Part shown: positions 2,365 to 59,597 of the stretch, piece by piece
Layout of the letters: every line of letters begins with the position of its first letter
How positions within the stretch are numbered: the stretch's first letter is position 1
Assembly (NCBI RefSeq): GCF_017498565.1
Contig: NZ_CP071794.1
Coordinates: 3,710,001 to 3,774,000, forward strand
Reading direction: 5' to 3'
Source: Parasphingorhabdus cellanae
Lineage (GTDB): Bacteria > Pseudomonadota > Alphaproteobacteria > Sphingomonadales > Sphingomonadaceae
Length of the DNA: 64,000 nt
Notes under the pieces: generated by a model
What the model saw: the letters and a program-made list of their open reading frames with translations, nothing else
Database searches by the model: none
Told to the model about the DNA's origin: nothing
Program-made: the position numbers and the translations under genes

Positions 2365-3153
2365 TTAGCGTGCGCTTCTGATAGCATCAGAAAGTGATTT
2401 TACATAGTCTTTGACATGTGGAGCAGCGTCGGCGCCATGTTCGGCGATGATCTCGACAATCGCGGAGCCAACGACAACGCCGTCGGCAACGCGCGCGATA
2501 TCAGCGGCTTGCTCCGGCGTGCGAACCCCGAAGCCCACGGCGACGGGCAGGTCTGTGCCCGCTTTCAGGCGAGAGACCGCTTCCTCGATGCTGGCCTGTG
2601 CCGCCTGTTGCAGCCCGGTAATCCCGGCGACAGAAACATAATAGAGAAAGCCCGAAGCGTTGTTGAGGATTTCTGGCAAGCGTTCGGCATCGGTCGTTGG
2701 TGTGGCGAGACGGATTACAGCGACATCCTTTGCGCGCAGACTATCGCCCAAGCTGTCATCTTCCTCCACGGGAATATCGACACAGATAACGCCATCAACG
2801 CCTGCGTTGACGCAAGCATCGGCGAACCAGTCGGCCCCGCGGATCGTCATCGGATTGGCATAGCCCATCAAAACAAGCGGCACCGTAGGATGGCGTTCCC
2901 GAAAGGCTGTGGCGATATTCAATATGTCCGCGGTTTTTGTACCTGCGCTGAGGCTACGGATATTTGCTGCCTGAATGGCGGGACCATCGGCCATGGGATC
3001 GGTGAACGGCATGCCGAGTTCGATAATATCGGCACCGCCATCGACTAGGGCGTCAAGGACAGCGCCAGTATCGGTAGCGGTCGGATCACCGCCGGTTACG
3101 AATGCGACAAGGGCTGCGCGGTCCGTTGGGAAGGCAGAGGCCAGGCGGGTCAT
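2365..3153 (-). CDS. trpA: tryptophan synthase subunit alpha
   Basis: TrpA cleaves indole-3-glycerol phosphate to indole and glyceraldehyde-3-phosphate and channels indole to TrpB. The 262-residue TIM barrel has the family signature IIELGMPFTDPMADGP. This contains the catalytic glutamate (Glu45) and aspartate (Asp56). A GFGVRTPEQA phosphate-binding loop lies near the end. The start ATG overlaps the stop of the preceding small membrane gene (ATGA) and has a GGAGAAGG ribosome site, indicating translational coupling. trpB, its partner, lies just upstream on the same strand, separated by one small gene. Confidence 0.96.
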   Translation of the reverse strand: MTRLASAFPTDRAALVAFVTGGDPTATDTGAVLDALVDGGADIIELGMPFTDPMADGPAIQAANIRSLSAGTKTADILNIATAFRERHPTVPLVLMGYANPMTIRGADWFADACVNAGVDGVICVDIPVEEDDSLGDSLRAKDVAVIRLATPTTDAERLPEILNNASGFLYYVSVAGITGLQQAAQASIEEAVSRLKAGTDLPVAVGFGVRTPEQAADIARVADGVVVGSAIVEIIAEHGADAAPHVKDYVKSLSDAIRSAR

Positions 3154-3356
3154 TTGCCTTCTCCGAGGCCATGTTCTCCAAAGACCCTTTTTCTAACCCA
3201 GTGAGCGATTGTGATCGCAACTAAGACAGCTGGCAAAGTCGTAAAATACTCGTTGTTTCCGAGTTGAGGAACCTGTTTCAACAGCCAAATGAAAACGACA
3301 CCAAGTGGAAGCGCAACAGACAAATAAAGGAGAAATGCCTTCGTTCGCTCAGTCAT
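3150..3356 (-). CDS. small two-helix membrane protein between trpB and trpA
   Basis: I do not recognise this 68-residue protein. It has two predicted membrane helices (roughly residues 7-25 and 40-55) and a short basic tail. It overlaps the trpB stop at its start and the trpA start at its end, both by the ATGA type of overlap. This tight coupling argues that it is a real translated gene, not a chance frame. No motif points to a function. It may simply travel with the trp genes; a link to tryptophan synthesis is not shown by the sequence. Confidence 0.7.
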
Positions 3357-4584
3357 ATCTCCGTCCCCAAAGCCTCAGCGACCGTGAAAATATCCTTGTC
3401 CCCGCGCCCACAGAGGTTGGCCAAGATTATCTGATCCTTGTCCATCTTGACCGCTTCCCGTGCCACGGCGGCAATCGCATGGCTCGGCTCCAGCGCCGGA
3501 ATGATGCCCTCCGTGCCACAGAGCAGTTGAAACGCTTCCAGCGCTTCGGTATCGGTCACGCTGTCATAACGCACTCGGCCGGATTCTTTCAGCCAGCTAT
3601 GTTCCGGACCAATGCCGGGATAGTCGAGACCGGCGCTGATCGAATGGGCTTCGTCAATCTGCCCGTCTTCGTCCTGCAGCAAATATGTTTTGTTGCCGTG
3701 CAAAATGCCGGGTTTCCCGCCCGCCAGCGATGCAGCATGTTCTTTTTCCAGGCCATGGCCCGCCGCCTCAATGCCGAGCATTTCGACATCGGGATCATCC
3801 AGAAATGGATGGAACAGGCCAATAGCGTTAGATCCCCGCCAATGGCTGCAACCAGCATGTCGGGCAGGCGACCTGTACGCGCCAGCATCTGTTCGCGCGC
3901 TTCGCGGCCAATGACACTTTGAAAATCGCGAACCAGTTCAGGATAGGGATGGGGGCCAGCGGCCGTTCCGATGATGTAGAAAGTATCATGCACATTGGCG
4001 ACCCAGTCGCGCAAAGCGTCGTTCATGGCGTCCTTCAGCGTCGCCGAGCCACTGGTCACTGGCACGACCTCTGCGCCTAGCAACCGCATCCGGAAAATAT
4101 TCGGCTTCTGCCGCTCAATATCGGTCGCGCCCATATAGATCACGCAGGGCAGGCCAAAGCGGGCGCAGACAGTCGCCGTTGCCACACCGTGCTGACCCGC
4201 GCCGGTTTCCGCGATGATCCGCGTCTTGCCCATGCGTTTGGCGAGCAATATCTGGCCGATGCAATTGTTAATCTTGTGCGCGCCGGTATGGTTGAGCTCA
4301 TCGCGCTTGAACCAGATTTGCGCGCCTTTGCCTTCTGGCGCGTCTTTCCGGACGTGCTCGGTCAGGCGCTCGGCAAAATAGAGCGGGCTGGGACGACCGA
4401 CATAATGCTCCAGCAGGTCATCAAATTCTTCCGCAAAAGCCGGGTCGGCCTGTGCCGCGCGATAATGCTTTTCCAGGTCGAGAATCAGCGGCATCAGCGT
4501 CTCGGCCACATAACGCCCACCAAATTGGCCGAAATGGCCGCGATCGTCGGGTTGGTTGCGGAAGCTGTTAGGTTGGTCGTTCAT
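3353..4584 (-). pseudogene. trpB: tryptophan synthase subunit beta, broken by a one-base frameshift as given
   Basis: TrpB condenses indole with serine, using PLP. The frame from the ATG at 4582-4584 gives a normal TrpB N-terminus with the PLP lysine region ([10 protein letters not shown]) up to LVAAIGG. It then leaves frame. The correct C-terminal part (NAIGLFHPF through GRGDKDIF) continues in another frame to the TGA at 3353-3355. One extra G in the run at 3834-3837 (CCCC on the plus strand) would restore the expected GGGSNA phosphate-binding loop and a 410-residue protein, a normal length. Both halves are otherwise intact and the gene sits in a conserved trp operon. A homopolymer sequencing error is therefore at least as likely as a genuine mutation. 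Confidence 0.9.
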
Positions 4585-48703: not shown

Positions 48704-49705
48704 ATGAAATTGCGCGTCGGGTTATTGGGTGGTGGTTCCTGGGGAACAACGGTGGCTTCTTTGGTGTCACGCAATGCGCCGATTAAGATTTGGGCGCGCG
48801 ATAACGATACCGTCCGGGACATAAACGAAAACCATCGCAACAGTAAATATCTGCCCGACGCCACACTGCCAGAGGCATTGCAAGCGACAGGCGATATCGG
48901 TGAAGCGGTTAAAGATGCCGACGTACTGGTGATGGGAATCCCATCCAATAATTTTCGGGATGTTCTGAAAGAAGCAAAATCCTATTTACGGCCCTGGGTT
49001 CCGGTCATTAGCCTGACCAAGGGTTTAGAGCTTTCTACTGGAAAGCGGATGACAGAAGTGATTGAAGAAGTTTTGCCCGGTCATCCCGTTGGTGTTTTGA
49101 CCGGACCCAATCTGGCGCGAGAAATAATGGCTGGCCAGGCGGCGGCCAGTGTGATTTCAATGGAAGACGAGATTATCGTCAAACAATTGCAACAGCTTTT
49201 CCATTCCGGTTTGTTTCGTGTTTATACAAATACGGATTTGCTTGGCTGTGAGCTTGGCGGCGTGCTGAAAAATATTATCGCAATAGCTGTCGGTATGGGT
49301 GATGGGCTCGGGGCAGGAGATAATACGCGCTCTGCTCTGATCACACGCGGCTTGGCAGAAATTACCCGCTTGGGTGTGGCTATCGGAGGACGCCCTGAAA
49401 CTTTTTCCGGTTTAACAGGCATGGGGGATATGATTGCGACTTGCACCAGCCCGTTAAGCAGAAACCGGCATGTCGGCGTAGAGCTAGGGAAAGGTCGTAA
49501 GATTGACGATATTATTGAAGATATGCTGATGGTGGCAGAGGGCGTTAAAAGTGCACCCACTGTTATGGCGTTGGCAAAAAAATATAATGTCGCAATGCCG
49601 ATTGCGGAAGATGTTTATGAAGTGACGAAAGGAACGCGATCTGCTGTACGCGCTTATCGGGGTCTGATTAGCGCATCGGCCGGGTCCGAGGCTGATGCCG
49701 GATGA
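48704..49705 (+). CDS. gpsA: glycerol-3-phosphate dehydrogenase [NAD(P)+]
   Basis: GpsA reduces dihydroxyacetone phosphate to sn-glycerol-3-phosphate, the backbone for phospholipids and triacylglycerol. The 333-residue protein has the NAD loop GGGSWGTT and the SLTKGLE and TGPNLAREI stretches. The catalytic lysine region is GGVLKNIIAIAVGMGDGLG. A GGGGAG ribosome site precedes the ATG. Its place at the end of the lipid run ties precursor supply to the acyltransferases. A transcript from upstream is likely but there is a 69-bp gap. Confidence 0.96.
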   Translation: MKLRVGLLGGGSWGTTVASLVSRNAPIKIWARDNDTVRDINENHRNSKYLPDATLPEALQATGDIGEAVKDADVLVMGIPSNNFRDVLKEAKSYLRPWVPVISLTKGLELSTGKRMTEVIEEVLPGHPVGVLTGPNLAREIMAGQAAASVISMEDEIIVKQLQQLFHSGLFRVYTNTDLLGCELGGVLKNIIAIAVGMGDGLGAGDNTRSALITRGLAEITRLGVAIGGRPETFSGLTGMGDMIATCTSPLSRNRHVGVELGKGRKIDDIIEDMLMVAEGVKSAPTVMALAKKYNVAMPIAEDVYEVTKGTRSAVRAYRGLISASAGSEADAG

Positions 49706-50059: not shown

Positions 50060-51013
50060 ATGGATTTGAGAAGCCAAGCCGTAAATGATGTTGAGGGTGA
50101 TTTGATCCTTGATGAGACGGAATCCTTGATCTTTCAGCAGCACGGTTTCGGCCAGGATATACTCCAGCAGCAATTTAATGAGATCGACTTACGGTTCGAC
50201 AAATCAGATGAAATATTCTGGTGTTATATGAACCAGAAATCCCGACCCAGTTACACTTATGCTCTGGGTGATGAAATTCAGCTTGTTCAAGACTGGGTTC
50301 AGACGAACTATGGACCTAGTGCTGCCAAGGCTGCTGATCCTTTGAGATATTTTGTATGTGGATCACATACTCCCGGCATTTATAATCTCGGCGGGGATTT
50401 AAAGCATTTTGCTGATTGCATCAGGCGCCGGGACTTGGGCGCGCTAAAGAAATACGCGCGGACCTGTGTTCATATGCAATATGCAAATAGCACCGGCTTT
50501 GGCGCACCGATTATCACTATGGCATTGGTCCAGGGAGATGCATTGGGCGGAGGGTTCGAACATGCTCTGGCATTCGACCTTTTGGTAGCCGAGAAAAGCG
50601 CAAGATTGGGGTTGCCCGAGATTTTGTTCAATCTTTTTCCCGGTATGGGCGCTTATAGTTATCTGCGGCAACGGCTTAGCCGTCGGGAGACGGAACGGTT
50701 CATATTAGAAGGTAAATTATTCACAGCGGAAGAGCTCTATGACATGGGGGTTGTCGACATTCTCGCCGAAGATGGCAAGGGTGAGCAGGCAATAATCGAA
50801 TATACCAAGGAAAATCGTAAACGTTTCCATGCGGAACGCGCTGTTTATAAAGCTCGTCGCTTAGCCAATCCGGTAACGCTAGATGAATTGCTAGAGATTA
50901 CCGATATGTGGGCAGAAACGGCACTGCATCTTGAAGATGCAGATGTACGCAAAATGGAGCGTTTGGCAAACGCTCAGCAACGCCGGATGGAACGTTCGCT
51001 TCTGGCAGTTTAA
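50060..51013 (+). CDS. RpfF-like enoyl-CoA hydratase (DSF-family signal synthase)
   Basis: A 317-residue crotonase-fold protein. The two glutamates essential in RpfF are present 20 residues apart, as in that family: Glu167 in LGGGFE and Glu187 in LGLPE, followed by the diagnostic LFNLFPGMGAYS. The oxyanion loop is NLGGDLKHF. RpfF makes cis-2-unsaturated fatty acid signals from acyl-ACP. The ATG at 50060 has GGAGAG upstream, and a longer frame from 49961 lacks support. It converges on an RpfC-like kinase gene with a 3-bp gap. That neighbour makes the signal-synthase call much stronger than the enzyme alone. Confidence 0.88.
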   Translation: MDLRSQAVNDVEGDLILDETESLIFQQHGFGQDILQQQFNEIDLRFDKSDEIFWCYMNQKSRPSYTYALGDEIQLVQDWVQTNYGPSAAKAADPLRYFVCGSHTPGIYNLGGDLKHFADCIRRRDLGALKKYARTCVHMQYANSTGFGAPIITMALVQGDALGGGFEHALAFDLLVAEKSARLGLPEILFNLFPGMGAYSYLRQRLSRRETERFILEGKLFTAEELYDMGVVDILAEDGKGEQAIIEYTKENRKRFHAERAVYKARRLANPVTLDELLEITDMWAETALHLEDADVRKMERLANAQQRRMERSLLAV

Positions 51014-51016
51014 ACC

Positions 51017-53623
51017 TTAGCCCGCAGCGCTGAAACCGCTGTCCGCGACCCTAGTGTGGCGCGGGGATGGTTTGCTTAAGAAATCAGTAATTCTGGATAA
51101 TTCTGTTTTTATCTCGTCGAGATAAACAAACCGTTTTTCGGTGAATTCTGCTTCAGTAATAACTTCAAGGACGCCGCACATTTGGGCGAGCTTGTTCGCT
51201 CCAACATTATTGGCACCGCTTTTAAAAGCATGTGCCTGAAAGCGAAAGTCATCGACATTTGATTGTTTCACCGATTGTTCAAATAGCAGCATAATTTCCT
51301 GCGTATCCTCGATATAGGCATCAATAATTGATTGAATAAAAACTTCATCCCCAATGGATTTGAGATAGTCCATTTGGACACCATCTATCGGTGGTTCTGA
51401 TTGGTTGGTTGCTTTTGTTCCGATATTGCGAACGACATTGAAGGGATCATTAGTATCGCTCATTGCCTGCGCTGTGTTGGCCTCAAGGAAGTTACCCGTC
51501 TGTTCTGCGACCGTATCCAGTAAAACCCCGGCTTCAATTGGCTTGGTAAGGCGAAGATCCATCCCGGCATCGAGACACTTCTTTTCTGTTTCCGGGGTTG
51601 AGTCAGCCGTCAAGCCGATTATTGGCACATGATTGCGAGGGCCTTCAATCTGGCGCCATAATTTACAGCACTCAATACCATCAATATTGGGCATATTGAC
51701 GTCGAGAAATACGATATCAAAAGAATATTTTTCGAGTTCATCCAACGCCAACTCACCGTCGGAAACCGCAACGACCTTGTGTCCGGCATTGACCAGGATG
51801 GTCTGCAAAACCATTTGATTGGTTCGGTTATCGTCCGCGATTAATATGTCGAGAGATACGTCGTTGCGAATAATCCGATCTGGATCATCTTCTTCGTTAT
51901 TGTTGGTGCGATTAAATGAACAGCCGATCTGGACGACGCTGCGCACCGCATCAAAGTCTGGTGAGGCAGGTAAAACGGAAGCGAACGCAGCACGCAATTT
52001 TATTTCGTCCAGACTTTTACTGCTGTCATTGGAGAGTAGGACAGGGGGCAGATTGGCTTCTTGGAAAATATCCCAGAGCGCGGAGTTATCCCTTTGCTGC
52101 TCTGCTATCATATCGTCCAGCAAAGCCAGATCATAAGAATGAAGCGCACGTTTCTCGAGTATCACTTCGAGTTTGTCATCGGTTAAACACTGGATATGGT
52201 CGACCTCAACATCACCTGCGTCCGAGCCACTTATCTCGGGACCATTTTGCCCAAAACCAAGTGATAAAATTTTGAGATTGTCTGAGTCTGCGGCATTCTG
52301 GACGGCCTTTATAATCTCAATCGGGCATGATAGCATAAAAGTGCTGCCCTCTCCCAATGTGCTATCGAGACTGACATGTCCGTCCATCTGTATCGCCAAT
52401 TGCTGACAAATCGCCAATCCAAGACCAGTTCCTCCAAAATTGTCGATGATAGTTTCATCGGCTTGTTGGAAAACTCCGAAAATCTTGTCATGGGCGTCGG
52501 CCGCGATGCCAGGTCCGGTGTCAGTAACCGAACACCAAAGCAGAGGAACATCGGCGTCGGTGTCGATACCGCATTTCAATGTTATTGAGCCGGTTTCAGT
52601 GAATTTTACAGCATTGCTGGTGAGATTGATCAATATGTTACGGATATATTCCAATTGTCCGCTAACAAGTTGATCACTCATCGCTTCGGCCTGCAAATGA
52701 ATGGTCAAGGCTTTTTCATCGGCCGCCAATTGCATGATGTCTCGGACTTCGGTGAGCACATCCACAATGCTGAACGTCTTCGGTTCCGGCAGCTCCTCTT
52801 GTGTGTCCGAGCGCGCAAAACTGAGCAGTTGATTGATCAAATGTAAAAGATGCTGACCGGCAGAAACGCTTGTGCTTACCATTTTTTGCTGCGCTTCCGG
52901 CAAGTTCATGTCCAGCAAATGCGTGCCATAACCGATAATAGCGTTGAGCGGGGTCCGCAGTTCGTGACTGATACTGGCAAGAAACAGACTTTTGGCTTTG
53001 TTCGCCTCTTCGGCCTCTTTCGTTGCTTTGGATATTTTTATAATCAGCGTCGAACAATAGGCAGGAATGATGATTAGCCCGAAAAGAAGCCCCAATGAGA
53101 GTGAAAGGTTTTGCTGCCAGAACGGGACACTGTAAACAGTCCAGCCAAATGATAGTGTCCCCATCGCGGCGGCAACGGCAAGCCACTTTATGCCAAAGCG
53201 GAAACCGTAACCTAGGATCACCCATAAGTATAACGGATAGAGGGCGGCCACCGCGCTACCGCCTATGTCGAAGAGGTACGTTGCCACTCCAAAATCCGTC
53301 ACTAGCCCGGCCAATCGCCTGGGATTGCTGGGGCCAGGTTCAAGGCGATACGCTATGTAGATGGTCAAGCTTGCCATCAGATGGAGCTTGAGGCCAAGCA
53401 TTATGGGTTGTGTTGCATCAAGGAACAACGAAATGGAAAGGGTTATAACAATCAAAACCAACCGGTTTATGATCATTTCCCGTTCGCGGTCCCGGCCGCG
53501 TGTCGCTAAACTATTGTGATGGCGACCGTGGTGATGGCGCCCGTTATGATGACGACTGTGATGATGATGAGGCTTACCATGACTATGTTTCTTGTGCCGC
53601 GTTTTCGGGTTGAATGTAAACAT
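51017..53623 (-). CDS. RpfC-like hybrid sensor histidine kinase with histidine-rich N-terminus
   Basis: An 868-residue kinase. Residues 9-37 are unusually rich in His and Arg. Four or five membrane helices follow (about 52-195), then HisKA (His220 in ISHELRTP) and HATPase (N box about 337, GTGLGL 398-403). A degenerate receiver-like segment (about 450-570), a true receiver (Asp641) and an HPt domain (His798, AHAFKSGANNVGA) complete it. This order and the membrane part match RpfC, the DSF sensor. The gene lies 5 bp after the response regulator gene in one operon. The first ATG has only a short-spaced AGGCGG site, and a second ATG at residue 50 would remove the His-rich stretch. Confidence 0.88.
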   Translation of the reverse strand: MFTFNPKTRHKKHSHGKPHHHHSRHHNGRHHHGRHHNSLATRGRDREREMIINRLVLIVITLSISLFLDATQPIMLGLKLHLMASLTIYIAYRLEPGPSNPRRLAGLVTDFGVATYLFDIGGSAVAALYPLYLWVILGYGFRFGIKWLAVAAAMGTLSFGWTVYSVPFWQQNLSLSLGLLFGLIIIPAYCSTLIIKISKATKEAEEANKAKSLFLASISHELRTPLNAIIGYGTHLLDMNLPEAQQKMVSTSVSAGQHLLHLINQLLSFARSDTQEELPEPKTFSIVDVLTEVRDIMQLAADEKALTIHLQAEAMSDQLVSGQLEYIRNILINLTSNAVKFTETGSITLKCGIDTDADVPLLWCSVTDTGPGIAADAHDKIFGVFQQADETIIDNFGGTGLGLAICQQLAIQMDGHVSLDSTLGEGSTFMLSCPIEIIKAVQNAADSDNLKILSLGFGQNGPEISGSDAGDVEVDHIQCLTDDKLEVILEKRALHSYDLALLDDMIAEQQRDNSALWDIFQEANLPPVLLSNDSSKSLDEIKLRAAFASVLPASPDFDAVRSVVQIGCSFNRTNNNEEDDPDRIIRNDVSLDILIADDNRTNQMVLQTILVNAGHKVVAVSDGELALDELEKYSFDIVFLDVNMPNIDGIECCKLWRQIEGPRNHVPIIGLTADSTPETEKKCLDAGMDLRLTKPIEAGVLLDTVAEQTGNFLEANTAQAMSDTNDPFNVVRNIGTKATNQSEPPIDGVQMDYLKSIGDEVFIQSIIDAYIEDTQEIMLLFEQSVKQSNVDDFRFQAHAFKSGANNVGANKLAQMCGVLEVITEAEFTEKRFVYLDEIKTELSRITDFLSKPSPRHTRVADSGFSAAG

Positions 53624-53628
53624 TCCGC

Positions 53629-55785
53629 CTAACCTTTTGCCGCGCTAGACGCTTGCTCTTGCGGTTTAAGAAATAGTTTGGGCAAATCCTCCACTCGCTG
53701 TGGACGAGCAATTTGATATCCCTGTATCTCGTCAACGCCTGAAACTTGAAGCAGCTCAAGTTGTGCATCGTTTTCAACGCCCTCGGCAATGACGCGCATA
53801 TCAAGCGCGTGAGCGAGATGCGAGATTGTCCCAATAATGGCGCGATCGGCGGCTGAATGTTCGATGCGCGATATAAAGGTGCGATCAATTTTGAGGCAAT
53901 TTGCTGGCAAATCACGCAGATATTGCAACGATGAATAGCCAGTGCCGAAATCATCGATGGAGATCCCGACACCGGTTTGGCGCAGACGATTTAAAGTCTC
54001 ACGGACATGATCGTTATTATCGAGCAATAGCTCTTCAGTAATTTCGACCACGATCTTCGATGGATCAATTCCGTTTTTCTGGATATTCTTCAATATCTCT
54101 TCGCAGACATTCTGGTTTTGAAACTGGCGCGGCGATACGTTTATGGCGACACGCGGCAGATCGATGCCTTCCTCCGCAAATTGTCGGATCTGTTTGCAAA
54201 CCTCGGCAATAACCCATTTGCCCAAGCTATCCATAATACCTGTGTCATCGGCTACTCTTATAAACTGTACCGGCAGCAAACGCCCGCGGGTCGGATGGTC
54301 CCAGCGAATTAACGCTTCCAGTCCGACATAGTTTAAGGTCTTCGCATCAACAATCGGTTGATATTCGAGGGCAAACTGATCCTGTCCCAGCGCGTCGCGC
54401 AACTCTATTTCCAGAGCAGCATCAGCCTGAGCGATTTGGTTCATACCTTCCGAGAAAAAGCGGTGGCAATTACGGCCATTGGCTTTCGCATCATACATTG
54501 CGAGATCGGCGAGGCGCAGCAACTCTTCATAATCATCACCATCGTTTGGAATTAAGCTGACGCCGATACTCGCGCCGATGACTTGCTCTATCCCGCTTAT
54601 GGAATATGGTTGATTGATCGCTTTCAATATTTTGGTACACCGCGAGTTGATGGCGTCTGCGCCTTCCACTTTGCCCAAAATGATCGCAAACTCATCACCG
54701 CCTATGCGTGCTGCGAAGTCGTCTGGACCGATCATCTCGAGAAGGCGGTCAGCCACTTCCCGCAGCAACGTGTCACCGCTATGATGGCCGCGCGTGTCGT
54801 TGATTACTTTGAAGCGATCGAGGTCCAGCAGCAGCAAAGCCGCTTCCTGTCCGGTTTTCGCGCAGGTATCGATCGCTTTGCGAACCTTTTCGGCCAACAG
54901 TGCGCGATTGGGTAGGCCCGTCAACATGTCATGGAGAGCAAGATGCGTGCGGTGCTCTTCAGCAAATTTACGGGCGGTAATATCCACTGCTGTCGTCAAT
55001 ACTCCGATGGTTTCACCATTGTGATTGAGCAGCGGAGATTTGTTGCAGTGGAAGATCAACTCAACGCCGTCACTTGTGAACTTCTCTTCATAATGCGGTA
55101 TTGGCTGTTCCGATTTCAGCACGCTTTTATTTCTGCGTTCAGAATTCTGTGCAAGGTCCGGCCCCAGCAATTCGCCAAAATCCTTGCCAACCATTTGATC
55201 GGGCGTCTTGTCGAACAGGGCCGATTGATAAGCATTGGTGAACAGACACCGACCTGACCGATCGGTGGCGTTGATCATGATTGGTATGGTATCAATAATC
55301 TGCTCGAGCATGCTTTTGCTTGCCGGCGTGTCTTGATCTACGGCATCAGAGAGCGCCGCATGTTTGCGTTCAATCTCGGAAGCGCGCTTTCTCAGATTGA
55401 CGCTTTTTTCGTTTTTCGTCAAAAGCGACATCGCCCGTTTGCAAAACTCAACGTGGGATACCGGACTTTGTAGGAAGTCGGTCGCGCCGGCATCCAGCGC
55501 AGACAACCGGCACTCGCGGTCCTGATGTGCTGTGATCACGATTGCGGGAACGTCGCTGCAAGAGGACATCTTGCGCACTTTTCTGATAAATTCCGCGCCA
55601 TTCATTTGTGGCATCCGATAATCCACCACCAGCAATTCAGCGCTGTTATTCCCCAACCATTCCAGCGCTTCGATGGGATCGGCAAATGTCACGGAGGAGT
55701 ATTTCTCCCCCATGATTGTCACAAACTGGGCATAAATCCTTAGATTTGTTGGCCGGTCATCGACGATGAGAACGCGCGTTGTCAT
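53629..55785 (-). CDS. response regulator with RpfG-like receiver and PAS-GGDEF-EAL output
   Basis: A 718-residue protein. Its receiver (1-120, Asp55 in VVDYRMP, FADPIEALEW, GATDFL) is very similar to that of RpfG. The usual lysine is replaced by Ser107 (LQSPV). A linker, a PAS domain (about 160-275), GGDEF (intact at 362-366, no RxxD inhibitory site seen) and EAL (Glu490; EITEELL, DDFGTGYSS, LKIDRTF, AEGVE all present) follow. It probably makes or degrades c-di-GMP under control of the kinase encoded next in the operon. RpfG itself carries HD-GYP here, so the output domain has been exchanged. Confidence 0.9.
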   Translation of the reverse strand: MTTRVLIVDDRPTNLRIYAQFVTIMGEKYSSVTFADPIEALEWLGNNSAELLVVDYRMPQMNGAEFIRKVRKMSSCSDVPAIVITAHQDRECRLSALDAGATDFLQSPVSHVEFCKRAMSLLTKNEKSVNLRKRASEIERKHAALSDAVDQDTPASKSMLEQIIDTIPIMINATDRSGRCLFTNAYQSALFDKTPDQMVGKDFGELLGPDLAQNSERRNKSVLKSEQPIPHYEEKFTSDGVELIFHCNKSPLLNHNGETIGVLTTAVDITARKFAEEHRTHLALHDMLTGLPNRALLAEKVRKAIDTCAKTGQEAALLLLDLDRFKVINDTRGHHSGDTLLREVADRLLEMIGPDDFAARIGGDEFAIILGKVEGADAINSRCTKILKAINQPYSISGIEQVIGASIGVSLIPNDGDDYEELLRLADLAMYDAKANGRNCHRFFSEGMNQIAQADAALEIELRDALGQDQFALEYQPIVDAKTLNYVGLEALIRWDHPTRGRLLPVQFIRVADDTGIMDSLGKWVIAEVCKQIRQFAEEGIDLPRVAINVSPRQFQNQNVCEEILKNIQKNGIDPSKIVVEITEELLLDNNDHVRETLNRLRQTGVGISIDDFGTGYSSLQYLRDLPANCLKIDRTFISRIEHSAADRAIIGTISHLAHALDMRVIAEGVENDAQLELLQVSGVDEIQGYQIARPQRVEDLPKLFLKPQEQASSAAKG

Positions 55786-55892: not shown

Positions 55893-58800
55893 TCAAGCAT
55901 TCAGCAAAGACACGTCCCCGCCGGCGGCTGCGATATTGCGTGTAATTGTCTTCTCATGGACAAACCGATCATGCGTATCAGCCATCGTTAAAATGGGGGG
56001 GATCGATCCTTTTCTTGACGCGATCGCTACCCCAATAGCCTTGATATTAGCGTCATTCGGTTCGGTTATGAGGGCACCAAAAGGTGCATCTTGCAGCTGA
56101 CTGGTCAAATCATCCAACGTGGATATTGTCCGTTGAACAAATCTGTCGATACCAATGGTCCGGTTTATGGCTGTGAACACCGGATCAATATCGCTCGTCG
56201 AACCGCCTTGATCGATCTGCAAAAAACTATTGCCGGTAACTATGGCGCGCGCGCAAGCGACAAGAATCGCATCGTCATCCTGCATCACCGAAATGATCAG
56301 GCCGCGCCCTTGAAGATGGTAAGCGTTCGTTTCGCCGGCAGGTGATGCGAGAGCGCCATCATTTGTGAGAAGATGTTTTCTGGATTGAAGTTCGCGACCA
56401 ATGAGTTCGCCAAATTCACTTCCGATATCTCTAGCCAATGTGGTAATCACTTCATCAGACGGGAAACCGCCATCTGTTTCGTTATAGGCAGCGATGCCAT
56501 CTGAAACGGCCCGGGAAAGATCGCCCAAGATAGTTTTGTCGTCACTGTCTGTGACAGCGACAGGTTTATTCGAAATATCTATTTTCGATCCTATTTTTTT
56601 CGAAAGACGAGGCAAATAAAGTGGGCCGCCAGCTTTGGGTCCTGTCCCTGACATTCCTTGGCCGCCAAAAGGCTGAACGCCGACCACGGCACCGATCTGG
56701 TTGCGGTTGATATAGATATTACCAACATGGGCCTGTTTGGCCATCGCATCACATATGCTGTCAATCCGGCTGTGGATACCAAGTGTTAAGCCGAATCCGC
56801 TGTTGTTGATCTTGTCGATCATACCCATTTTTTCATGGGCAGAAAACCGGACGATATGCAGTACGGGGCCAAAAATTTCCCGGTCAATATCGGAAAAACG
56901 ATCCAGTTCGTAAGCGACAGGACGGATGAAATGACCTTCTGGGATAAGACCTGTTGTTGTCTCTCCAACCTTTCGTCCTATTTCATCTAGTCGCTTGATA
57001 TGGCTGACGATATTCTGCTTCGCGTCGGCATCAATAACCGGACCGATATCGCAATCCATTTGATCGGGATTGCCAATCCTTAATGCATCCATCGCACCGC
57101 TCAGTAATTCCATAAAAGCATCCGCTATGTCCTCTTGCACGCATAGGACGCGCAGCGCTGAACAACGCTGTCCGGCACTTTGAAAAGCCGAGGATACGAC
57201 GTCATCGACCGTTTGCTCCAAGAGGGCAGAAGAGTCGACTATCATAGCATTAATGCCGCCGGTTTCAGCAATAAGGGGAGTGAGCGCGCGCCCTTGGTCG
57301 GCCAGACGGCTTGCTATGCGTTTGGCTGTTGCCGTCGAGCCGGTAAAACAAACGGCTGCAACTGCCGGATTGGAAATCAAGGCTTCGCCAATATGCGCGC
57401 CATCACCGGGAACCAAATTAATCGCCGCCGGATCAATTCCCGCATCATGCAACAACCGCACTGCCTCTGCCGCTATCAGCGGTGTCTGTTCAGCGGGCTT
57501 CGCAACTACCGTATTCCCGGCCGCCAGGGCTGCCGTGATCTGACCGAGAAATATCGCAAGCGGAAAATTCCATGGGGAAATGCATATTGTTACGCCGAGC
57601 GCTTCCCGATCCGCAAAAGACGCCGCTCTCGCTTGTTGGGCATAGTAGCGACAGAAATCCACAGCCTCTCGCACTTCATCTATTGCATCTGACCATGTTT
57701 TTCCTGCCTCTTTGACCGCCAGATAATGGAAAGTTCCGGCCCGCAGCTCAAGCAAATCAGCGGCCTTTTCCAGCGCAGCAGCGCGTTCGGAAACGGGGCG
57801 GCTAGACCATCCCTTAAAAGCCAGGTTAGCCGCTTCAACCGCTGTCTCAGCTTGTTTTTCGTCAGCGGAAACAACATGGCCTATAACCTCATGTAACATC
57901 GCTGGATTGGCGACCGCTTGCTGATCGCCTGTGGCTTCTTCGCCGATGATATTTGGTGCAGCAAGAAAGGTGTCTTGCGCAGCATGATTCAAACCCTTTT
58001 TGAAACGAGACTGAATTTCCGGATTGGATAGATCCCAACCAGCTGCGATTTCCCGTGTGCCTAGCAGATAACGTCGTGGTTTCGGGATAATATCATTTGT
58101 GACGGATTGATATTGCGTCAGCTCAGTGACTGGATCGCGCGCAAGCGTGAATAGCGGGATGTCCTGATCGGCTAGCTTGTTTACGAAAGAGCTATTGGCA
58201 CCATTTTCGAGCAATCGTCGGATCAAATAAGATAACAGATCTTTTTGTGTGCCCACCGGCGCATATATTCGACTGCTGGCGTTGGGCTGGGTCAATATAA
58301 TATCGTGCAGCTGTTGGCCCATGCCGAAGAGGCGTTGAAATTCAATATCGTGGTCATTGCCTGCCAACTCCTGCACCGCCGCGGCGCTATACGCATTATG
58401 CGTGGCAAATTGTGGGTGAAAACAATCGGGATGGTCCAACAGTTTTTGTGCGCAGGCCAGATAGCTGAGATCTGTCATTTCCTTTCGAGTGAACACGGGA
58501 TAGCTCTCGAGTCCCATCTCCTGAGCGCGTTTTATCTCGCTGTCCCAATAGGCGCCTTTCACGAGCCTTATAAATAGAGGTGCTTCGAGTTGGCGGGATT
58601 TTTCCGTCAGCCAGTCAAGCAAGGGTAGGGCGCGTCGCTGATAGGCTTGCACCACAAAGCCTAGGCCTTGCCAGCCCCTGAGTTCAGGACTGGCGATCAG
58701 GGCTGCAAGAACATCCATCGATATGTCAAGCCGCTCGGTTTCTTCCGCATCAATGGTAATTTGAACATTTGCTTTTTTTGCTTTGATAGCAAGCGTCAGC

Positions 58801-59597
58801 AATTTGCGCGCAATTTGGGGAACAACATGTTTTGCTTGGGCATATTCATATCGAGGGTGCAAGGCCGATAATTTTATCGATATGCCATGGTTGAATCGAG
58901 GGTCATGAGACTGGGCGTTTTGCGCTACTTTGTCCAAGGCTTGCGTATAAGCCGCGTAATATTTTTCTGCATCAGACATGGTACGTGCCGCTTCACCGAG
59001 CATATCAAAAGAGAAAAGATAACCCGTTTGGCCATATTGCTTGGCGCGCTTCAGCGCTTGATCGAGAGTTTCGGCAAACACAAATTGCGAGGATAGGGCT
59101 TTGATTGCCGTTCGGGTCGCGAAGCGGAGTTTTGCATTGCCGGTCTTCGCCAGTGGGTTTCTGGCGTTCTTTGTCCACTGCAGCCATTTGTCAGTCAGAT
59201 GCAATGCTCTGCCAGAGAGGCTCATCGCGAGCGTATGGCCCGACCCGGCGTGAGAAAGCCAGCGGCGCCCCTTAAGCTTATCGCGGATGAGTTCGTTAGC
59301 GGTGACAGGGTCGGTTGTTCGAGACAAGGCTTCTGCAAGGCGCATGAGCTGCACACCTTCGTCACTTGATAAGCCATATTCTGTCAGAAACTGATCGATT
59401 AAGGGTATATTGGTGTTGGCGCGTAGCTGCTCCATCAAGCTGCTGCTGCTAGCTGATATCTTGTCCCAGGCCGCGCCGTCGAGCCGCAAATCGTTTTGCA
59501 TCTTTGCCTTTAAGGCTTTTTCGCAGCGCCACGTCGCAGCGGAGATATCGTTTCGAAGCTTTTGTTCGGATGAGTGGATCGGGGTTTGCTGATTCAT
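55893..59597 (-). CDS. putA: bifunctional proline dehydrogenase / L-glutamate-gamma-semialdehyde dehydrogenase
   Basis: PutA oxidises proline to glutamate in two channelled steps, with electrons to quinone and NAD. The 1234-residue protein has a helical N-terminus, the flavin barrel (about 140-480, with LVKGAYWD) and the aldehyde dehydrogenase (about 545-1010). The latter contains ISPWNFPL, AETGGINAM and the catalytic Cys812 in GQRCSALR. A C-terminal domain of about 200 residues is present, as in long PutAs. There is no ribbon-helix-helix repressor domain at the start, so it should not self-regulate. Control probably falls to the divergent PutR. The ribosome site is weak. Confidence 0.96.
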   Translation of the reverse strand: MNQQTPIHSSEQKLRNDISAATWRCEKALKAKMQNDLRLDGAAWDKISASSSSLMEQLRANTNIPLIDQFLTEYGLSSDEGVQLMRLAEALSRTTDPVTANELIRDKLKGRRWLSHAGSGHTLAMSLSGRALHLTDKWLQWTKNARNPLAKTGNAKLRFATRTAIKALSSQFVFAETLDQALKRAKQYGQTGYLFSFDMLGEAARTMSDAEKYYAAYTQALDKVAQNAQSHDPRFNHGISIKLSALHPRYEYAQAKHVVPQIARKLLTLAIKAKKANVQITIDAEETERLDISMDVLAALIASPELRGWQGLGFVVQAYQRRALPLLDWLTEKSRQLEAPLFIRLVKGAYWDSEIKRAQEMGLESYPVFTRKEMTDLSYLACAQKLLDHPDCFHPQFATHNAYSAAAVQELAGNDHDIEFQRLFGMGQQLHDIILTQPNASSRIYAPVGTQKDLLSYLIRRLLENGANSSFVNKLADQDIPLFTLARDPVTELTQYQSVTNDIIPKPRRYLLGTREIAAGWDLSNPEIQSRFKKGLNHAAQDTFLAAPNIIGEEATGDQQAVANPAMLHEVIGHVVSADEKQAETAVEAANLAFKGWSSRPVSERAAALEKAADLLELRAGTFHYLAVKEAGKTWSDAIDEVREAVDFCRYYAQQARAASFADREALGVTICISPWNFPLAIFLGQITAALAAGNTVVAKPAEQTPLIAAEAVRLLHDAGIDPAAINLVPGDGAHIGEALISNPAVAAVCFTGSTATAKRIASRLADQGRALTPLIAETGGINAMIVDSSALLEQTVDDVVSSAFQSAGQRCSALRVLCVQEDIADAFMELLSGAMDALRIGNPDQMDCDIGPVIDADAKQNIVSHIKRLDEIGRKVGETTTGLIPEGHFIRPVAYELDRFSDIDREIFGPVLHIVRFSAHEKMGMIDKINNSGFGLTLGIHSRIDSICDAMAKQAHVGNIYINRNQIGAVVGVQPFGGQGMSGTGPKAGGPLYLPRLSKKIGSKIDISNKPVAVTDSDDKTILGDLSRAVSDGIAAYNETDGGFPSDEVITTLARDIGSEFGELIGRELQSRKHLLTNDGALASPAGETNAYHLQGRGLIISVMQDDDAILVACARAIVTGNSFLQIDQGGSTSDIDPVFTAINRTIGIDRFVQRTISTLDDLTSQLQDAPFGALITEPNDANIKAIGVAIASRKGSIPPILTMADTHDRFVHEKTITRNIAAAGGDVSLLNA

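What the first reader, a model, noticed from the sequence alone, without database searches (positions are those of the whole stretch)
50060..55785. Variant DSF quorum-sensing module: RpfF-like synthase, RpfC-like kinase and an RpfG-like receiver wired to GGDEF-EAL
Seen: a crotonase with both RpfF glutamates and the LFNLFPGMGAYS signature; a membrane hybrid kinase with HisKA, HATPase, receiver and HPt in RpfC order; and, in the kinase's operon, a response regulator. Known: in Xanthomonas, RpfF makes DSF, RpfC senses it, and RpfG (receiver plus HD-GYP) degrades c-di-GMP. Inference: this strain has a complete signal-synthesis, sensing and c-di-GMP output unit in which HD-GYP is replaced by PAS-GGDEF-EAL. 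That could invert or make bidirectional the link between cell density and c-di-GMP. I do not know of a described alphaproteobacterial system of this form.
Basis: partly seen in the sequence, partly recalled or inferred. Interest (0 to 1): 0.9.

Follow-up and report, generated by a model that had tools for sequence, protein, structure and literature searches.

The report
Rewired fatty-acid quorum-sensing gene trio
An alphaproteobacterium carries a three-gene cell-to-cell signalling unit like that of Xanthomonas, in which the usual output enzyme has been exchanged for a different c-di-GMP enzyme; relatives carry the same signal-and-sensor core with still other outputs.

Summary
rpfF (50060-51013, +), an RpfC-type hybrid kinase (51017-53623, -) and a REC-PAS-GGDEF-EAL regulator (53629-55785, -) form a tight unit with the Xanthomonas layout (rpfF convergent with the regulator-kinase operon). 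The crotonase groups with RpfF, apart from 8 ordinary crotonases of the genome. The regulator's receiver is the RpfG receiver: an HMM of 8 RpfG receivers ranks it first of 30 from its genome, 123.6 against 77.1 bits. Synthase and regulator occur in the same 29 of 31 other genus genomes; one complete genome lacks the trio as a block between gpsA and putA. The trio recurs in 42 of the 80 nearest named loci, mostly Alphaproteobacteria by title; an even class sample shows mainly another output, REC-PAS-histidine kinase (15 of 24 loci). So: a new variant of the known DSF system, one core with swapped outputs. Against a plain DSF reading: the window's kinase has S18 to R and Q22 to M in the motif needed for DSF binding in Xanthomonas, and a His-rich tail. 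The sign of the c-di-GMP effect is untested. I ran no experiment and found none in print.

The parts
50060..51013 (+). rpfF-like DSF-type synthase (crotonase fold), 317 aa, glutamates E167 and E187
51017..53623 (-). rpfC-like hybrid histidine kinase, 868 aa: His-rich N-terminus, membrane input domain, HisKA, HATPase_c, REC, HPt
53474..53497 (-). residues 43-50 of the kinase, counterpart of the Xanthomonas RpfC R15-Q22 DSF-docking motif: D45 and E47 kept, R15 place is G43, S18 to R46, Q22 to M50
53629..55785 (-). response regulator REC-PAS-GGDEF-EAL, 718 aa, with RpfG-type receiver, in the place of RpfG (REC-HD-GYP)
48704..49705 (+). gpsA-like flank (named by reading); left border of the block that is absent in G009
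55893..59597 (-). putA-like flank (named by reading); right border of the block that is absent in G009; not next to the trio in every genus genome

Best explanation
It is a DSF-type quorum-sensing unit with a rewired output. RpfF makes a cis-2-unsaturated fatty acid from a 3-hydroxyacyl-ACP (inferred from the family). The membrane kinase RpfC senses a fatty-acid signal at its input domain and passes phosphate through its REC and HPt domains to the receiver of the partner regulator (inferred from RpfC/RpfG). That regulator has an RpfG-type receiver (shown by sequence) joined to PAS-GGDEF-EAL in place of HD-GYP (shown). Phosphorylation, together with whatever the PAS domain binds, sets the balance of a diguanylate cyclase and a c-di-GMP phosphodiesterase whose active-site residues are present (residues shown, activity inferred); net phosphodiesterase activity on signal is the likeliest sign, about 0.6. 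The unit is present or absent whole (shown for one complete genome).
For: RpfF: the four best solved chains are 7zq7, 3m6m, 6dgn and 5fus, two of them named RpfF; E167/E187 conserved; apart from the 8 ordinary crotonases tested, support 100. It scores 225 bits on NCBI's RpfF model, below its 550 cut-off, but an RpfF 95% identical to the 6dgn chain scores only 182, so that cut-off does not exclude DSF synthases. RpfC: its REC domain's best REC-only solved match is the RpfC receiver 3m6m_D, 1.8e-22; the input domain shares near-invariant residues with RpfCs next to RpfG, e.g. E47 in 91 and W169 in 93 of 93 rows. Receiver: 66-90 bits to the 8 RpfG receivers against a median of 26 for 144 controls; first of 30 in its genome with an RpfG-receiver HMM. 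Linkage. Output residues: catalytic EAL places 50 of 50 rows, GGDEF 45-50 of 50 per place. The genome's HD-GYP matches do not coincide with any of its 31 receiver matches.
Against: No biochemistry or chemistry. Of the five RpfC residues needed for DSF binding in Xanthomonas (R15, D17, S18, E19, Q22; PMC5391125 passages) the window keeps D17 and E19 only; S18 is R (every replacement but T lowered the response there) and Q22 is M. The PAS keeps by my reading 2 of the 5 BDSF-contact residues of RpfR, and a sequence search with it listed no RpfR chain. The receiver lacks the usual active-site lysine: S in its place. The window's GGDEF lacks the RxxD inhibitory site.
Confidence: 0.75

Rival explanations
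1. The trio is a signalling unit, but the signal is not a standard DSF: in this genus the input domain has changed (S18R, Q22M, His-rich tail) to sense another fatty acid, or to gate the response by a metal or pH.
For: S18 and Q22 counterparts changed in the window and its genus; the Q22 place is M, I or L in 48 of 49 GGDEF-EAL-linked rows but Q in 21 of 22 kinase-linked and 8 of 8 HD-GYP-linked rows; median 7.5 His in up to 40 residues before the E19 counterpart in 30 genus rows against 0, at most 3, in 76 others.
Against: The Q22 change needs only 1-2 events on the trees, so it marks a clade and gives no independent test. S or T stands at the S18 place in 26 of 49 GGDEF-EAL-linked rows. In Pseudomonas PA1396 much of the N-terminal region can be deleted without loss of DSF sensing (PMC6536496 passages).
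Confidence: 0.3
2. The crotonase is a metabolic enoyl-CoA hydratase or acyl thioesterase whose neighbourhood to a two-component pair is incidental.
For: Flanking genes look metabolic (gpsA, putA by reading). RpfF-like crotonases without an RpfC beside them exist in the same family (G033, G035; the G033 one passes NF006452 with 348 bits).
Against: Grouping with RpfF; both glutamates; convergent linkage to RpfC in 56 of the 60 named loci with an RpfC; same 29 of 31 genus genomes for synthase and regulator; block absence.
Confidence: 0.08
3. The regulator acts mainly as a diguanylate cyclase, so that signal raises c-di-GMP: the inversion proposed by the first reader.
For: GGDEF motif intact and no RxxD inhibitory site in the window.
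Against: The catalytic EAL places are invariant in 50 of 50 rows; RpfR and RpfG, the known outputs, are described as degrading c-di-GMP (PMC4504480, PMC6361424, PMC8357829 passages or sections).
Confidence: 0.3

Closest known systems
RpfF/RpfC/RpfG system of Xanthomonas (rpfGHC convergent with rpfF)
   Same: Synthase, hybrid sensor kinase with HisKA-HATPase-REC-HPt, orthologous receiver, convergent gene order.
   Different: HD-GYP replaced by PAS-GGDEF-EAL; receiver lysine replaced by serine; DSF-docking residues of RpfC changed; RpfF 40% identical to the 3m6m chain.
RpfF/RpfR system of Burkholderia and Cronobacter
   Same: PAS-GGDEF-EAL output, rpfF beside and convergent with the output gene.
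   Different: RpfR has an N-terminal FI domain that binds RpfF; here a receiver stands there and a kinase is present; PAS contact residues mostly differ.
rpfF-rpfC loci with REC-PAS-histidine kinase found here (for example L168-L170, L175-L184)
   Same: Same synthase, sensor, receiver and PAS families.
   Different: Output is a second histidine kinase, no c-di-GMP domain (for L168 and L172).
PA1396 and RpfS DSF sensors
   Different: Other output regulators; the passages seen describe no synthase beside them.

Membership tests
DSF synthase RpfF | Crotonase with the two catalytic glutamates | tested here: met
   E167 and E187 present; each place E in 138 of 139 non-outgroup rows
DSF synthase RpfF | Groups with RpfF and not with ordinary enoyl-CoA hydratases | tested here: met
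   8 of the 16 other ECH_1 matches of the genome form a separate clade, support 100, quick tree
DSF synthase RpfF | NCBI equivalog NF053515 cut-off (550 bits) | tested here: not met
   225 bits. Controls: 182 for one 95% identical to the 6dgn RpfF chain; 361, 370 and 238 for three beside RpfG; 235 beside a REC-PAS-kinase; 199 for one without RpfC. None of the six reaches 550
DSF synthase RpfF | Makes a cis-2-unsaturated fatty acid | not testable with these tools
   needs LC-MS
RpfC | Membrane input domain of the RpfC type followed by HisKA-HATPase-REC-HPt | tested here: met
RpfC | R15, D17, S18, E19, Q22 of the DSF-docking motif | tested here: not met
   D17 and E19 kept; R15 place G, S18 to R, Q22 to M
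RpfG | RpfG-type receiver | tested here: met
   first of 30 own-genome receivers with an RpfG-receiver HMM
RpfG | HD-GYP output domain | tested here: not met
   PAS-GGDEF-EAL instead
RpfR | PAS-GGDEF-EAL | tested here: met
RpfR | N-terminal FI domain binding RpfF | tested here: not met
   a receiver occupies the N-terminus
RpfR | BDSF-contact residues S169, N172, Y183, R187, N202 of the PAS | tested here: not met
   2 of 5 kept (S169, N202 places) by reading of the alignment
c-di-GMP cyclase/phosphodiesterase | Catalytic EAL and GGDEF motifs | tested here: met

The most novel reading that the evidence does not exclude
The RpfF-RpfC-receiver core is an old, exchangeable quorum-sensing cassette. 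Its RpfG receiver has been joined in evolution to different outputs: HD-GYP, PAS-GGDEF-EAL, PAS-histidine kinase. In the alphaproteobacterial branch a shared PAS after the receiver adds a second cytosolic input, the receiver switches without its lysine, and in the window's genus the sensor has been retuned (S18R, Q22M, His-rich tail) to a different or gated signal, so that the same circuit carries another message and may act with either sign on c-di-GMP.
Probability: 0.3. Interest if true: 0.8.

Novelty: new variant of a known kind. Interest (0 to 1): 0.65.

Why it matters
DSF signalling is known mainly from Xanthomonas, Burkholderia and relatives. If this reading is right, a DSF-type circuit occurs in many Alphaproteobacteria, a class for which my ten searches of the held library showed no experimentally described rpfF-rpfC unit. 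The set of loci with the same receiver and different outputs is a natural experiment on how one signalling core is rewired, and it makes the question whether quorum sensing raises or lowers c-di-GMP directly testable in culturable species.

Tried and rejected
Ordinary enoyl-CoA hydratase: rejected by the tree and the linkage. RpfR ortholog: rejected, receiver in the place of the FI domain, 2 of 5 PAS contacts. A separate RpfG elsewhere in the genome: three HD_5 matches in two genes, none at the place of a receiver match. Independent co-evolution of sensor motif and output: not shown; the motif changed 2 times on the RpfF tree and once on the RpfC tree, and the independent-pairs test had 2 pairs and no power. 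Structure prediction of the RpfC input domain (A2) and of REC-PAS (A3) was tried; each time the machine was busy, so no model was made and no fold search run. Plasmid records: 14 hold an RpfF-like protein; in the three annotated regions opened (Methylobacterium, Bosea, Sphingomonas) it sits by an EAL protein and not by this trio; the M. extorquens AM1 region carries no annotation.

Results that limit the claim. The 80 named loci are the best by similarity to the window out of 406 confirmed relatives in a capped scan, so 42 of 80 overstates the share of this output. In the evenly drawn class sample 24 of 385 genomes, the window's own among them, have an RpfF-like protein; the 23 others gave 24 loci (one genome has two), of which 15 have REC-PAS-kinase, 1 REC-PAS-GGDEF-EAL and 8 neither or run off the contig; one of the 8, L174, has REC-PAS-HisKA_2. 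In the phylum sample 63 of 398 genomes have a match; I fetched 20 loci of my choice, so I give no rate for it. Genus loci were thinned before trees and alignments: 7 of 29 kept, 3 of 29. Several loci occur twice under two names, judged by equal contig lengths: L072/L040, L073/L041, L074/L065, L118/L195, L122/L197, L069/L132, L082/L170, L104/L177, L135/L212; the 8 HD-GYP rows are therefore 7 distinct loci, and the row counts are slightly inflated. Domain calls rest on phmmer with window seeds and a regular expression for HD-GYP, on ORFs found mechanically; they can miss divergent or frameshifted genes. The 144 receiver controls include RpfC receivers and some cut members of the regulator family itself.
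Full report
What is there. rpfF runs 50060-51013 (+); the kinase 51017-53623 (-); the regulator 53629-55785 (-). The stop codons of rpfF and rpfC are 3 bp apart, and the regulator's stop lies 5 bp before the rpfC start. Pfam gives HisKA, HATPase_c, Response_reg and Hpt for the kinase, and Response_reg, PAS, GGDEF and EAL for the regulator. The genome is one contig of 3.78 Mb; its nearest named relatives in the scan are two uncultured Sphingomonadaceae (93% identical RpfF). The gene order, with rpfF convergent with a regulator-kinase operon, is the one described for Xanthomonas rpfGHC and rpfF (passages of PMC4504480).

Is the crotonase an RpfF? Its best solved relatives are 7zq7 (named only crotonase/enoyl-CoA hydratase family protein), 3m6m and 6dgn (named RpfF) and 5fus (that 3m6m is from Xanthomonas and 6dgn and 5fus from Burkholderia is from the literature and recall). 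It passes NCBI's broad model NF006452 (350 bits, cut-off 177) and fails the RpfF equivalog NF053515 (225 bits, cut-off 550). As a control I scored six others: one 95% identical to the 6dgn chain gives 182; three beside RpfG give 361, 370 and 238; one beside a REC-PAS-kinase 235; one without RpfC 199. None reaches 550, so that cut-off excludes likely synthases, and the score does not separate RpfC-linked from unlinked ones. In a quick maximum-likelihood tree of 147 rows the 8 other crotonases of the genome that I had fetched, of 16 other ECH_1 matches, form their own clade with support 100. E167 and E187 are each E in 138 of 139 non-outgroup rows.

Is the kinase an RpfC? Its receiver's best REC-only match among solved chains is the RpfC receiver 3m6m_D. 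The membrane input domain aligns with those of RpfCs next to RpfG; E47, R54, R102, W134, G140, R142, G144 and W169 are kept in 90-93 of 93 rows. In Xanthomonas R15, D17, S18, E19 and Q22 are needed for DSF sensing, and their replacement abolished binding (PMC5391125, passages). In the window the matching stretch keeps D and E, but R15 is G, S18 is R and Q22 is M. In rows linked to GGDEF-EAL the Q22 place is M 34, I 10, L 4, Q 1 of 49; in kinase-linked rows Q in 21 of 22; in HD-GYP-linked rows Q in 8 of 8. On the trees this needs 1-2 changes, so it is a clade mark, not repeated co-evolution. The genus also has a His-rich N-terminus: median 7.5 His in up to 40 residues before the E19 counterpart in 30 rows, 14 in the window, against 0 (at most 3) in 76 other RpfCs. 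In PA1396, a DSF sensor with the same type of input domain, much of the N-terminus is dispensable and two transmembrane helices are needed (PMC6536496, passages), so change of the motif does not by itself exclude DSF sensing.

Is the receiver RpfG's? The window's receiver scores 66-90 bits against 8 RpfG receivers, 84-118 against 22 receivers of REC-PAS-kinases, and a median of 26 against 144 control sequences, many of them RpfC receivers. The top-scoring controls belong to the same family, cut or divergent. An HMM of the 8 RpfG receivers ranks the window's regulator first of 30 sequences from its genome (30 of its 31 receiver matches were fetched), 123.6 against 77.1 bits for the next. The active-site lysine of receivers (a family feature that I recall) is S in 68 and T in 2 of 72 GGDEF-EAL rows (2 not matched by the pattern), S in 21 and T in 1 of 22 kinase rows, and K in 5 and R in 3 of 8 RpfG rows by reading; of 30 receivers of the genome 28 have K, the window's has S, one is a gap. 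So the receiver and RpfC were kept while the output changed. The HD-GYP matches of the genome lie at places where no receiver was found.

Linkage and distribution. In the genus, RpfF is found in 29 of 31 other genomes and the regulator in the same 29. The two without, G009 and G022, also give no RpfC at 1e-40. G022 is 73% complete and says little. G009 is rated 100% complete, and there a putA-like gene follows gpsA directly: the block from rpfF to the regulator is missing as one piece; the putA match there covers residues 1-1003 of 1234, so the junction may lie in its 3' end. Whether this is loss or never gained I cannot tell. Of 29 genus loci 28 show RpfC and 27 the regulator beside rpfF; the exceptions, L058 and L061, are at contig ends, and their regulators lie on other contigs, in G026 with an RpfC. 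In 80 named loci 60 have a detected RpfC, 56 of them convergent and downstream of rpfF with gaps of -72 to 885 bp; 42 have REC-PAS-GGDEF-EAL, 5 REC-PAS-kinase, 2 REC-HD-GYP (titles: Zetaproteobacteria, Thioalkalivibrio), 6 a GGDEF-EAL protein without receiver, and 25 no recognised output (11 of these with RpfC), some of them cut by contig ends. Carriers of the GGDEF-EAL form include Ancylobacter, Roseomonas, Inquilinus, Microvirga, Gluconacetobacter, Rhizobium, Aureimonas, Stappia and Pseudovibrio by record title; one title says Burkholderiales and one Mycobacterium. In an even sample of the class, 24 of 385 genomes, the window's own among them, have an RpfF-like protein; of 24 loci from the 23 others 15 have REC-PAS-kinase, 1 the GGDEF-EAL form, 8 neither or cut off, none HD-GYP. 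With receiver-linked rows only, GGDEF-EAL against the other two outputs needs at least 4 changes on the RpfF tree and 3 on the RpfC tree.

How it probably works. From the family: RpfF turns 3-hydroxyacyl-ACP into a free cis-2-unsaturated fatty acid; RpfC autophosphorylates on signal and passes phosphate on. Here the acceptor is a REC-PAS-GGDEF-EAL protein. The catalytic EAL places (E490, N549, E581, D611, D612, K632, E668, Q688; their roles from recall) are invariant in 50 of 50 rows, while two neighbours in DDFGTG vary (46 and 48 of 50); GGDEF is kept in 45-50 of 50 at each place; the window lacks RxxD. The best-matching solved GGDEF-EAL proteins are 4rnh/4rnf and 5m3c. The PAS keeps 2 of 5 RpfR BDSF contacts by my reading, the S169 and N202 places (contacts from PMC6361424, Results section read). 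What the PAS binds is open. The sign of the c-di-GMP effect cannot be told from sequence; I put 0.6 on net degradation.

What is in print. Ten searches of the held library were made. They returned the Xanthomonas, Stenotrophomonas, Burkholderia, Cronobacter, Pseudomonas and Leptospirillum systems, a survey that says alpha- and betaproteobacteria and Nitrospira contain the RpfC-RpfG pair by KEGG orthology (PMC8895600, passages), a c-di-GMP sensory review that lists RpfR (PMC8846402, passages) and a Bradyrhizobium paper on an RpfB-like FadD (PMC10226988, passages). None in the listings, abstracts or passages seen describes RpfF-RpfC with a REC-PAS-GGDEF-EAL or REC-PAS-kinase output. Most hits were seen only as listings, and the library holds only open-licence papers, so this is weak evidence of absence. 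Verdict: new variant of a known kind.

Noticed in passing
window 53504-53623 (RpfC residues 1-40): His-rich tail before the sensor motif, 14 His in the window; enriched in the genus, not in 76 other RpfCs. May bind metal.
   Followed up: partly
L068 7782-9848 and L069 7104-8996: RpfF fused to a C-terminal haem-oxygenase-like domain (PF14518 in L069; L068 by reading), near REC-PAS-kinase and RpfC.
   Followed up: partly
L201 9852-11789: RpfF followed by a MerR-PAS-GGDEF-EAL protein: a DNA-binding type N-terminus in the place of the receiver.
   Followed up: no
L070 and L071: RpfF-like crotonases without RpfC beside them, near genes that look like an exosortase-A exopolysaccharide cluster by reading of the frames.
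   Followed up: no
L083 2646-4178, L086 2608-4131, L174 10261-11799, L136 7403-9241: REC-PAS-HisKA_2 regulators beside rpfF (first three) and a REC-PAS-GAF-PAS protein (L136): further output types.
   Followed up: partly
L247 (G009) around 2999-3413: Site between gpsA and putA without the trio that stands there in relatives.
   Followed up: yes
L249, L250, L251: Large plasmids of Methylobacterium, Bosea and Sphingomonas carry an RpfF-like gene next to an EAL protein.
   Followed up: partly
L172 2699-3697 and 8977-11199: Two RpfF-like genes flank REC-PAS-kinase and RpfC in one locus.
   Followed up: no
L089: Record titled Mycobacterium sp. KBS0706 carries the alphaproteobacterial-type trio; the title may be a wrong label.
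   Followed up: no
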